A stretch of DNA of 64,000 nucleotides from Brevibacillus sedimenti (lineage in GTDB: Bacteria > Bacillota > Bacilli > Brevibacillales > Brevibacillaceae): assembly GCF_020923495.1 (NCBI RefSeq), contig NZ_CP064048.1, forward strand, positions 893,501-957,500, written 5' to 3'. Under the pieces are notes generated by a model that made no database searches, was not told the DNA's origin, and saw only the letters and a program-made list of their open reading frames with translations. Position numbers and translations under genes: made by a program. Shown in pieces: positions 8,271-48,174 of the stretch. How positions within the stretch are numbered: position 1 is the first letter of the stretch; each line of letters opens with the position of its first letter.

Positions 8271-8378
8271 CCTCATACACCTCTTTTCCGCCCTGAATCG
8301 TTTGCCGAAACAGAGTTATATACAAATGCACATACAAGATAGTAGCACGGTTCGAAGCGAAATGCAACAGACTGTCCG

Positions 8379-40121: not shown

Positions 40122-40127
40122 TATACT
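40122..40127 (+). promoter_or_regulatory. Extended -10 promoter of the small toxin gene
   Basis: TGCTATACT is an extended -10 element; no good -35 is visible. The transcript would start near 40134 and carry a leader of about 60 nt. Confidence 0.55.
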
Positions 40128-40193
40128 CATAGACATCGGCTCCTCAAGGGTGGTCGGCTCATCTCCCACGTCGAAAACGGGGGAGGTGAGAGT

Positions 40194-40304
40194 ATGGCAA
40201 TTACGCACGAAACCATGAGCCTGATGATTCAGTTCGGCGGCTTTATTGTCGGCCTGCTGAGTCTCGTCGTGGCGATTGTTGCTTTGACGCAAAAAAAGAA
40301 GTGA
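40194..40304 (+). CDS. Putative holin-like (type I) toxin, 36 residues
   Basis: MAITHETMSLMIQFGGFIVG is followed by LLSLVVAIVALTQKKK. This is one hydrophobic helix with the MSLMIxFGxFIV pattern and a basic tail, the signature of the putative holin-like toxin family related in style to TxpA. GGGAGGTG lies 8 nt before the ATG. Its stop codon falls in the arm of a hairpin that is a terminator for the opposite strand. The small gene plus convergent antisense transcript is the type I toxin-antitoxin layout. The membrane is the likely target. Confidence 0.8.
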   Translation: MAITHETMSLMIQFGGFIVGLLSLVVAIVALTQKKK

Positions 40305-40445
40305 CCTCCCCTTGAGTTGAGAACCGGAGGTCACTTCGGTCAAATTCTGAGCCGATCCCGTAAAGGGAGCAGCTATTGTACAAGGCTGCAGATGTTCCCG
40401 CATCTGTAGCCTTTTTTACCATATGCATCTGCTGTTCCTATCATA
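40289..40445 (-). ncRNA. Putative antisense antitoxin RNA
   Basis: A minus-strand extended -10 (TGGTATGAT, hexamer 40440-40445) would start an RNA near 40433. It ends at the hairpin formed by GGAGGTCACTT (40326-40336) and AAGTGACCTCC (40299-40309), followed on that strand by CTTTTTTTGCG. The RNA of about 145 nt covers the toxin stop codon and 3' region. The assignment rests on layout; expression is not shown. Confidence 0.6.
40382..40417 (+). terminator. Terminator of the toxin mRNA
   Basis: AAGGCTGCAGATG pairs with CATCTGTAGCCTT (one G-U pair) around TTCCCG, followed by TTTT. On the minus strand it lacks a T run, so it serves the toxin gene only. Confidence 0.85.
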
Positions 40446-46980: not shown

Positions 46981-47112
46981 CTTCAACGCCCCTTCCGTCA
47001 ACAGTGTGGCCGTGCTTTCCTAGTTTCACGCATCTGCGGACAGGACATGCGCTGAAAAATGCTCCAACAACATCACGGATCAGCAGCAAACACAGCGAAG
47101 CAAACGTTTTCG

Positions 47113-47159
47113 TAAAAAAAGACAAACAGGAAAAGAGAGACGGGCTCTTTTCCTGTTTG
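47113..47159 (-). terminator. Strong terminator ending the ywhD/RNA segment
   Basis: CAAACAGGAAAAGAG and CTCTTTTCCTGTTTG form a 15-bp perfect stem around about 7 nt. On the minus strand TCTTTTTTT follows. It lies about 560 bp beyond the ywhD stop codon with no credible gene in between. Confidence 0.9.
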
Positions 47160-47344
47160 CTGACCTAGTGTACATGTATACAGCTATGGAAATAAGTTTA
47201 CCTGACTTCAATACGACTAACAATTGATTTCACAATTTGTTCACATTCCGTTCAAGATTTACAGCTTCCATACTGAAGACAAACGGTTCATTGAGTTAGC
47301 GTCCACAAAAAATGATTTCCAGGCCGAAAGGCCTGCCTGTTCAT

Positions 47345-47655
47345 CAACCGAAGCGGAAGACAATGTGCGTCGCATGAAGGGTTGGGCCAAGCGAGCTCCT
47401 TTGACGACCGACTCAGCGGAAAAACGAAGACGCGGGAATCAACAAGGACACAAGTCTCACTTCCTCGAAATACCCAGATGTTTGTCCCCTGCCCGCGTCT
47501 CGTTTTGGAGCGGCCTTCATCCGCTTCTGTGCTGGGCGTCAAGCGAGCGAGCGGGCCCGATCTCCCATGCGCCGCGGACTTTGTCTACACGCTGAGCTTC
47601 GCCCAACCAGACAACAGGATGGACCGAACGAAAGGCTCAACCGTGCACGTGCACG
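47345..47655 (-). ncRNA. Candidate structured RNA in the gene-free segment after ywhD
   Basis: The 500-bp gap holds nested complementary segments: GGTTGGGC (47380-47387) with GCCCAACC (47601-47608); CTCAGCG (47412-47418) with CGCTGAG (47590-47596); AAAACGAAGACGCGGG (47421-47436) with CCCGCGTCTCGTTTT (47492-47506), 15 bp with one bulge; GGACACAA with TTTGTCC inside that. Such nesting suggests a folded RNA. The strand is chosen because a terminator ends the segment on the minus side. It matches no RNA class I know. A start near 47650 or processing from the ywhD transcript are both possible. Confidence 0.45.
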
Positions 47656-47676
47656 TCCTGCTTTATAACGCCAACT

Positions 47677-48174
47677 TTACGCCAACGCCTGCTTCAGTTC
47701 CTCGCTGGAATTCTCCCACATCGCCGGGTTGTGTTCCATCAACAGCTTTTTCAGCGCCGCTTTTTCCGTGTCGTTTAGCTCTGACACCATGATGCGCCGT
47801 TTCATCGAGTAGTCCATTCGGTTGACATGGTCGGCCAAAATTTTGTATCCGCGCCGAGCCTCCCGGTCAATCTCCATGTAGCAGGCGGTTACCCCGGCGT
47901 AATACGGCCCCGAATCGTTGCGGTCAACCGTTACCCAAACCACCCAATACGGCTTGCCGTTGGGCACCTCTTCCTTGTTGGTCGTCCACTTGACGCCTTT
48001 TTCCACGGCGCTTTTTGCATGCATAGCACCCATGTCGATGTAAGCCTTGTCCCCGTCAATGATAACGGAGGAGACAGCGCTCAGGTCAAGCACCCCCTGC
48101 CCATAACCGCCGTGCACGTTCGTTTTTCCGCTCACGATCGTAAAACCGCCAGATTTGCTGTCAAAAATGTCCAC
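47677..48174 (-). CDS. ywhD: YwhD family protein
   Basis: A 165-residue protein matching B. subtilis YwhD by recall: VIIDGDKAYIDMGAMHAKSAVEKGVKW and TNKEEVPNGKPYWVVWVTVDR. The function is unknown; in B. subtilis ywhD neighbours pbpG as here. I prefer the GTG at 48174, 9 nt after AAGAGG, over a GTG three codons earlier which would directly abut that site. The C-terminal helix-rich end (ELNDTEKAALKKLLMEHNPA) is conserved. Its transcript appears to run on into a structured 3' segment. Confidence 0.88.
   Translation of the reverse strand: MDIFDSKSGGFTIVSGKTNVHGGYGQGVLDLSAVSSVIIDGDKAYIDMGAMHAKSAVEKGVKWTTNKEEVPNGKPYWVVWVTVDRNDSGPYYAGVTACYMEIDREARRGYKILADHVNRMDYSMKRRIMVSELNDTEKAALKKLLMEHNPAMWENSSEELKQALA

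What the first reader, a model, noticed from the sequence alone, without database searches (positions are those of the whole stretch)
47113..47655. Large nested-helix segment: candidate new structured RNA
Between ywhD and a very strong terminator lie about 500 bp without a credible gene but with at least four nested complementary segments, including an almost continuous 15-bp helix and an 8-bp closing helix 214 bp apart. The nesting order is consistent with one folded RNA of about 230-500 nt. I cannot match it to tmRNA, RNase P, 6S, SRP RNA, riboswitches or group II introns.
Basis: partly seen in the sequence, partly recalled or inferred. Interest (0 to 1): 0.75.

Follow-up and report, generated by a model that had tools for sequence, protein, structure and literature searches.

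The report
Terminator-hopping transposon with RNA-like fold
The segment is one of dozens of copies of a small jumping DNA element that usually lands in the stop signals of genes and duplicates the whole signal, and it carries a folded, RNA-like module that turns up in many related bacteria, matched no family in the RNA library we searched, and has no known job.

Summary
The folding is real, but it is not one locus-specific RNA. Window 47269-47594 is a 326-bp non-autonomous transposon (MITE) with IS1182-type ends; relative G025 holds the empty site. At least 67 cores at 60 bits or more lie in this genome. Of 54 TIR-bounded copies, 44 have exact or near direct repeats of 18-38 bp, and 43 of those fold as stable hairpins, mostly intrinsic terminators. 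All 12 full-length IS1182-family elements of two relatives do the same. The window copy is an exception, with a 6-bp duplication.

Inside lies a ~199-nt module (47371-47569), a genuine covarying structure: 92.3% of pair cells kept against 62.2% shuffled; 42 of 45 pairs change on both sides against 33 shuffled. It matches 40 of 299 genomes of the class, lies between at least three kinds of transposon ends, and has no Rfam match. RNA versus single-stranded DNA, expression and function are open.

The parts
47269..47594 (+). MITE: 326-bp non-autonomous element with IS1182-type imperfect terminal inverted repeats
   Evidence: TIR and TSD script, copies, empty site in relative G025
47269..47284 (+). 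left terminal inverted repeat; one mismatch from CAGACTGAAGACAAAC
47579..47594 (-). right terminal inverted repeat (CAGCGTGTAGACAAAG on the minus strand)
47263..47268 (.). target-site duplication AGCTTC, left copy; single in the empty site of G025
47595..47600 (.). target-site duplication AGCTTC, right copy
47371..47569 (+). structured module (covariance models R1 and R2), RNA or ssDNA
   Evidence: R1 214.4 bits; R2 178.9 bits
47382..47386 (+). outer helix 5' arm, with 47564-47568
   Evidence: alignment; covaries (helix 1); not among the pairs predicted from the sequence-only alignment
47395..47409 (+). helix P2 5' arm, with 47534-47548
   Evidence: covaries (helices 3-6); not among the pairs predicted
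47421..47436 (+). long helix P3 5' arm, with 47492-47506
   Evidence: covaries (helices 8-10) and, in part,
47410..47420 (+). conserved internal-loop motif ACYCAGCGGA, 5' side
   Evidence: exact CAGCGGA in 18 of 32 modules
47507..47533 (+). conserved internal-loop motif GGAGCGGAC....CUUCYUUGC, 3' side (window copy carries GGAGCGGCC)
   Evidence: AGCGGNC without T at N in 29 of 32, exact GGAGCGGAC in 9 of 32
47445..47488 (+). apical helices and loop with the GUCUC...ACCCAGAUGUUU motif shared by a subset of modules; the helix at 47445-47448 is damaged in the window copy

Best explanation
The segment is a non-autonomous IS1182-type transposon (MITE) carrying a conserved structured module. Shown by sequence: the element has IS1182-like ends; most of its relatives sit in stable hairpins, mostly intrinsic terminators, with the stem-loop duplicated on both sides; the module's helices are kept by compensatory change. 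Inferred: an IS1182-family DDE transposase supplied in trans cuts the element out and joins its 3' ends to the two 5' feet of an extruded terminator stem-loop. Repair then copies the whole hairpin. The downstream hairpin keeps its T-tract, so the host terminator would survive, which could explain why so many copies are tolerated. The ~199-nt module is a separate passenger, found between different transposon ends, that most likely works as a folded RNA bound by a protein. In this genome the only transposase found is a remnant, so the copies are probably stranded. The window copy is an atypical insertion (6-bp duplication, no hairpin) and is somewhat decayed. Sub-claims: MITE 0.95; hairpin-duplicating IS1182 transposition 0.9; structure under selection 0.95, also in place without recent copying 0.7; acts as RNA rather than ssDNA 0.65; protein-bound 0.5.
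For: Mobility: 43 places in own genome, this one included; empty site; TSD of at least 14 bp in 44 of 54 elements, range 18-38, median 26, 19 of them perfect; 43 of those 44 fold to -8 kcal/mol or lower against 7.8% of 880 control segments; A-rich before and T-rich after. Transposase: 12 of 12 full-length elements in G002 and G023 have perfect 15-25 bp hairpin duplications, and two ORFs of one copy match NF033551 IS1182, DDE_Tnp_1_6 and DUF772. Of 36 IS1182-related loci scanned, 23 show palindromic duplications: 10 are G002/G023 copies already, 13 are new (4 Paenibacillus, 3 G028, 6 G034). MITE ends match IS ends at 14 and 15 of 16 bases with G028 and with G034. The own IS1182 remnant ends in a TIR one base different, beside a terminator. 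Structure: (92.3% of cells paired against 62.2% shuffled and 40-47% slid; 367 cells changed on both sides against 98 shuffled). Orthologous loci, model structure: 11 compensatory and 4 one-sided kept changes. Spread: 40 of 299 genomes of the class. Different ends.
Against: The window copy itself lacks the duplicated hairpin. 10 of 54 elements have no TSD of 14 bp or more. TSDs were clear in only 8 of 18 copies in G037 (14 bp or more, several poorly matched) and 11 of 19 in other genera of the family (12 bp or more). 13 of 36 IS1182 loci gave no TSD, two of them a tandem pair that resolved. Two elements have flanking hairpins inverted to each other (L064, L083), not predicted by the simple model. 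A4 was aligned to the model, which favours its structure; the sequence-only alignment recovered only the inner helices. In the three orthologous pairs, 6 pairs are standard in one sequence only and 4 in neither; the 0 broken pairs are partly by construction, since that structure was predicted from the same two sequences. Strand evidence is weak: mean z -4.39 against -3.99, + lower in 18 of 32; G-U 50 against A-C 12; in the G000/G037 core alignment G-U counts favour neither strand (157 on +, 304 on -). No orientation bias, no promoter-like site, and little room for one in compact ~250-bp elements. Nothing measured here shows expression.
Confidence: 0.85

Rival explanations
1. The module acts as folded single-stranded or cruciform DNA, for example a binding site for a transposase, replication or recombination protein, and is never needed as RNA.
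For: No orientation bias to genes, no promoter-like site, near-palindromic on both strands, divergent pairs of modules in some genomes, compact elements with only about 20-30 nt between TIR and module. The authors of PMC11109978 (passages) allow the same for their abundant mobile motif.
Against: G-U wobbles exceed A-C mismatches 50 to 12 on the + strand (the structure was predicted with G-U allowed, which biases this). The module occurs with different transposon ends, so it is no specific transposase site.
Confidence: 0.33
2. The module has no function: MITE copies look conserved because they descend from a recently active master, and the palindrome is a by-product.
For: Copies within this genome are 80-96% identical, as expected of recent transposition. 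In three orthologous loci 10 of 25 changed pairs are not kept as standard pairs in both.
Against: Compensatory changes among modules from many genera, conserved internal-loop motifs, and 15 of 25 changed pairs kept in the orthologous loci, 11 by compensation.
Confidence: 0.04
3. A group IIC-type intron or other retroelement targeting terminators.
For: Group IIC introns insert at terminators (recalled).
Against: No Rfam group II match in the window; inverted terminal repeats and duplicated target; DDE transposase partners with matching ends.
Confidence: 0.02
4. The module is a guide or scaffold RNA for a nuclease encoded elsewhere, like OMEGA RNAs of IscB or TnpB (recalled).
For: Multicopy structured module on transposons without its own protein gene.
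Against: No Rfam match at gathering threshold. Neighbouring proteins were not searched systematically, so a partner gene is not excluded.
Confidence: 0.07

Closest known systems
IS1272 / TnSha1 (IS1182 family), PMC4923244 and PMC5678879
   Same: IS1182-family element; targets inverted repeats, often terminator hairpins, without a primary sequence consensus (passages)
   Different: IS1272 replaces or deletes the stem-loop and leaves no duplication; here the whole stem-loop is duplicated, the outcome drawn as hypothetical pathway b in PMC5678879 (Discussion, part 1 of 2 read)
Mobile/repeat sequence candidates (MRSC), e.g. MRSC-65-2, PMC11109978
   Same: Multicopy structured nucleic acid with covariation and inconsistent gene orientation (passages)
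   Different: MRSC-65-2 has a conserved UYCCGG repeat and occurs in diverse phyla; none of 32 modules here has two or more TYCCGG, and outside the class no match was found in a sample of the phylum
Bacterial MITEs (recalled)
   Same: Short, no transposase, terminal inverted repeats shared with a full IS
   Different: Carries a structured, covarying passenger that is also found between other kinds of ends

Membership tests
IS1182-family MITE | Terminal inverted repeats shared with full-length IS1182-family elements | tested here: met
   14 and 15 of 16 bases with IS of G028 and of G034; 15 and 12 of 16 with G002
IS1182-family MITE | Full-length partner encodes an IS1182-family transposase | tested here: met
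   One G002 copy: NF033551 259.6 and 221.8 bits on two ORFs, each below the 270-bit whole-protein cut-off (the gene is split); PF13751 and PF05598 above cut-off
IS1182-family MITE | Target-site duplication at the window copy | tested here: met
   6-bp AGCTTC, single in the empty site; it is not a hairpin
IS1182-family MITE | Mobilised in trans by that transposase | not testable with these tools
   needs a transposition assay
IS1272-type stem-loop replacement | Target stem-loop removed, no duplication | tested here: not met
   hairpin duplicated in 12 of 12 full-length elements of G002 and G023 and in most long-TSD MITE copies
Structured RNA family (new) | Covariation of predicted helices across homologues | tested here: met
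   orthologous pairs mixed but mostly kept
Structured RNA family (new) | Transcribed as RNA | not testable with these tools
   strand tests only suggestive; no promoter-like site
Any Rfam 15 family | Match at gathering score | tested here: not met
   window and 20 divergent loci (the only gathering match in those loci is a T-box in L221 outside the module). Permissive searches: window region, low scores only; L220, none; L252, RsaE 25 bits against 79 required and two weaker, mostly beside the module
MRSC-65-2 | Conserved UYCCGG repeat | tested here: not met
   0 of 32 modules with two or more TYCCGG, 4 of 32 with one; its full model was not available

The most novel reading that the evidence does not exclude
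A new class of structured RNA, about 200 nt, that is a passenger in its own right: it rides on at least three different kinds of transposon ends, one of which duplicates whole terminator hairpins, is kept in place by selection in some genomes, and forms a ribonucleoprotein of unknown role.
Probability: 0.42. Interest if true: 0.85.

Novelty: new variant of a known kind. Interest (0 to 1): 0.72.

Why it matters
Two things. First, it gives dozens of natural insertions, plus full-length partners with transposase, for a target mechanism that PMC5678879 drew only as a hypothetical alternative: the duplication length is set by the target's hairpin, and the terminator is preserved. That makes a structure-guided, host-sparing mode of transposition directly testable. 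Second, it exposes a structured module found in 19 of 118 sampled genera of the class, often in several copies, without an Rfam match, whose stems covary while its internal-loop motifs stay similar, as in functional RNAs. Why different small transposons carry the same fold is an open question that RNA-seq and pull-downs can answer.

Tried and rejected
Rejected: a locus-specific RNA of 230-500 nt (the fold is a dispersed element; the closing helix uses host flank). Rejected: known RNA families such as tmRNA, RNase P, 6S, SRP, riboswitches and group II introns (no Rfam match). Disfavoured: protein coding (no Pfam family in five ORFs; stem lengths vary between modules). Disfavoured: a cis-acting 3'UTR element in fixed orientation. 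Considered: identity with a 190-bp repeat of Bacillus subtilis, recalled from the 1997 genome paper.

Led nowhere: phages and plasmids by distant DNA search with single cores (no match); a gapped motif in viral contigs gave 19 stretches, none confirmed by R2 at E 0.01; the exact 19-mer gave 3 stretches, 2 of them real modules. Literature searches on IS1182, MITE, terminators, repeats and noncoding RNA listed the IS1272 and MRSC papers, but I saw no description of this element. Most subscription papers are not held and I opened four papers only, in passages or one section, so this does not show that it is unpublished.

Dropped rows and limits: one search required both TIRs within 4 mismatches, so copies with decayed or missing ends (several of the 45) are not among the 54; one of the 54 (L066 at 3419776) is probably a false pair, with no R2 match. 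Repeats were scored with mismatches allowed; 19 of 44 are perfect. A4 used hits at E 5e-8 or better, which left out the weaker antisense matches. A5 left out L215 and L214:1988-2202. Class and phylum searches scored at most 8 and 6 candidates per genome, and model E-values are rough. One search uses a crude longest-ORF rule. One search counts two loci twice (L219/L254, L220/L242), and its loose IS1182 motif also occurs at both ends in 26 of 300 controls. In A6 several rows were fed antiparallel, so it served for a rough look only. On rechecking I added; one search weakened the in-place claim, so I lowered the novel-case odds from 0.45 to 0.42.

Full report
What was claimed and what is there. 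The + strand of 47113-47655 folds to -191.2 kcal/mol against a shuffled mean of -150.7 (z -6.24), and the minus strand has z -3.05. So the nested complementarity is not chance. Rfam has no match there above a family's gathering score, and a permissive search gave only low scores. Five ORFs of the segment have no Pfam family at E 1.

It is a dispersed element. Searching the own genome with the segment gave 44 matches: the segment itself, one short antisense self-match, and 42 further places at 80-96% identity covering window 47269-47596 or part of it (40 of 106 candidates scored). In the 26 genus genomes, own included, the left flank (47113-47268) is conserved in all 26; element DNA matched at E 1e-5 in only one of the 25 others, G025. 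In G025 the flank runs straight on across the insertion point. The element starts and ends with imperfect inverted repeats, and the window copy is bounded by a 6-bp duplication, AGCTTC.

Targets are hairpins, mostly terminators. Of 54 elements with both ends recognisable, 44 have direct duplications of 18-38 bp (median 26; 19 perfect, the rest with mismatches). 43 of 44 fold at -8 kcal/mol or lower (mean of all 44 -15.3), against 7.8% of 880 random segments of the same lengths. They are preceded by A-rich and followed by T-rich sequence (mean 4.4 A and 3.6 T in 8 nt, against about 1.7 expected), as in intrinsic terminators. Of the ten without, two (L054 at 891130, L080) show partial hairpin duplication, one (L064) has an inverted hairpin pair, one is the window copy, one is probably a false pair, and five show nothing clear. 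L083, counted among the 44, is better read as an inverted pair. The hairpin upstream of the element loses its T-tract and the downstream one keeps it. A copy seen on two viral contigs (L209, L211) likewise sits between duplicated hairpins.

The transposase. The own genome holds one IS1182-type remnant by PF13751, and its end carries a TIR one base different from the MITE's, next to a terminator. Two relatives, G002 and G023, have six full-length copies each (1551-1553 bp). All 12 have perfect 15-25 bp duplications that are stem-loops, one pair in tandem. Two ORFs of one copy are IS1182-family by NCBIfam and Pfam; each ORF alone falls below the NCBIfam whole-protein cut-off. A scan of 36 IS1182-related loci found palindromic duplications of 16-31 bp in 23: ten of the G002/G023 copies again, and 13 new ones from named Paenibacillus records (4), G028 (3) and G034 (6). 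In G034, where IS1182 elements and module-bearing MITEs coexist, one MITE end equals an IS end over 15 of 15 bases.

The passenger module. Cores from this genome and from G037, another genus, align with blocks of invariant sequence. Twenty of these loci gave no Rfam match at the module. On 34 diverse matches aligned to the model, 92.3% of pair cells are standard pairs (62.2% after shuffling, 40-47% when slid), 42 of 45 pairs have changes on both sides (33.0 shuffled), 367 cells do (98.4 shuffled), and the covariation score is 0.579 against 0.157. That alignment leans towards the structure. A sequence-only alignment of 32 still gives 18 predicted pairs, 15 with compensatory changes, though only for the inner helices. 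A second model (R2) found 46 modules in 40 further loci, 74 matches in the own genome, 67 of them at 60 bits or more, and, in 398 genomes drawn from the phylum, only the own genome (stricter filters, sparse sampling of the positive families).

The module is separable from the transposon. In several genera of the family it lies between IS1182-type ends with duplicated hairpins (11 of 19 loci in G034, G035 and G036), in one orientation in G000 and G036 and in the other in G034 and G035. In G211 and G119 it lies between AAGCGTTGTGA-type ends (both ends in 5 of 8 and 1 of 1; control 1 of 300), and in G236 and G228 between GGCKTGTTGATTA-type ends (2 of 4 and 1 of 1; control 0 of 300). The transposase families of those two were not identified. 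In G127 and G087 it occurs partly as divergent pairs, at places that correspond in the two genomes. Three such orthologous pairs are 86-87% identical with flanks. Under the model's structure, 15 of 25 changed pairs are kept (11 compensatory, 4 one-sided), 6 are standard in one only and 4 in neither. One search had shown 8 compensatory, 13 one-sided and 0 broken, but on a structure predicted from the same two sequences. So maintenance in place is likely, not proven.

RNA or DNA. The + strand is favoured modestly (consensus energy -12.3 against -8.3; G-U 50 against A-C 12; mean z -4.39 against -3.99, lower in 18 of 32); an earlier count on the less diverse core alignment favoured neither strand. 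Orientation to neighbouring genes is not biased (26 against 21 in tandem contexts; convergent 25, divergent 14, 3 incomplete). No promoter-like site was found in 47100-47700. I therefore put RNA at about two to one over single-stranded DNA.

Comparison with the literature. IS1272 of the IS1182 family targets hairpins but removes them and makes no duplication (PMC4923244, passages; PMC5678879, passages and Discussion part 1). The latter paper sketches whole stem-loop duplication as a possible alternative pathway; the elements here look like that pathway. Structured mobile repeats are a recognised class of candidate (PMC11109978, passages; PMC8632094, passages). The example described there, MRSC-65-2, has a UYCCGG repeat that is lacking here. 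I did not find this element in print in the searches listed under Tried and rejected, but the library lacks most subscription papers. That the source is a Brevibacillus-like bacterium is my recollection from gene content, not a tool result.

Noticed in passing
window 47113-47268: A ~150-bp non-coding block conserved in all 26 genus genomes searched. The minus strand reads TGTGAACAAAT..GTGAAATCAATTGTT, then a GTGTACATGTACAC palindrome in most relatives (window copy GTATACATGTACAC), then a strong terminator with T-run: a candidate small RNA or regulatory locus.
   Followed up: partly
window 40124-40409: Rfam BsrG (RF01412) match, 70.1 bits, full length: a possible type I toxin-antitoxin locus.
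   Followed up: no
window 8281-8315: L31-Firmicutes ribosomal protein leader on the minus strand.
   Followed up: no
L064 and L083: Hairpins flanking the element are inverted relative to each other rather than direct repeats, which a simple staggered cut does not predict.
   Followed up: partly
L086 1586-2952 (G002) and other G002/G023 copies: The IS1182-type transposase lies in two overlapping ORFs in the 10 copies listed, with a run of six A at about the overlap: possible programmed frameshifting.
   Followed up: no
L243, L244: The 3' part of the module is followed by tandem units of about 55 bp in G211, a genome of another family.
   Followed up: no
L031 and L054: Tandem arrays: three and two elements in a row, separated by copies of the same hairpin.
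   Followed up: partly
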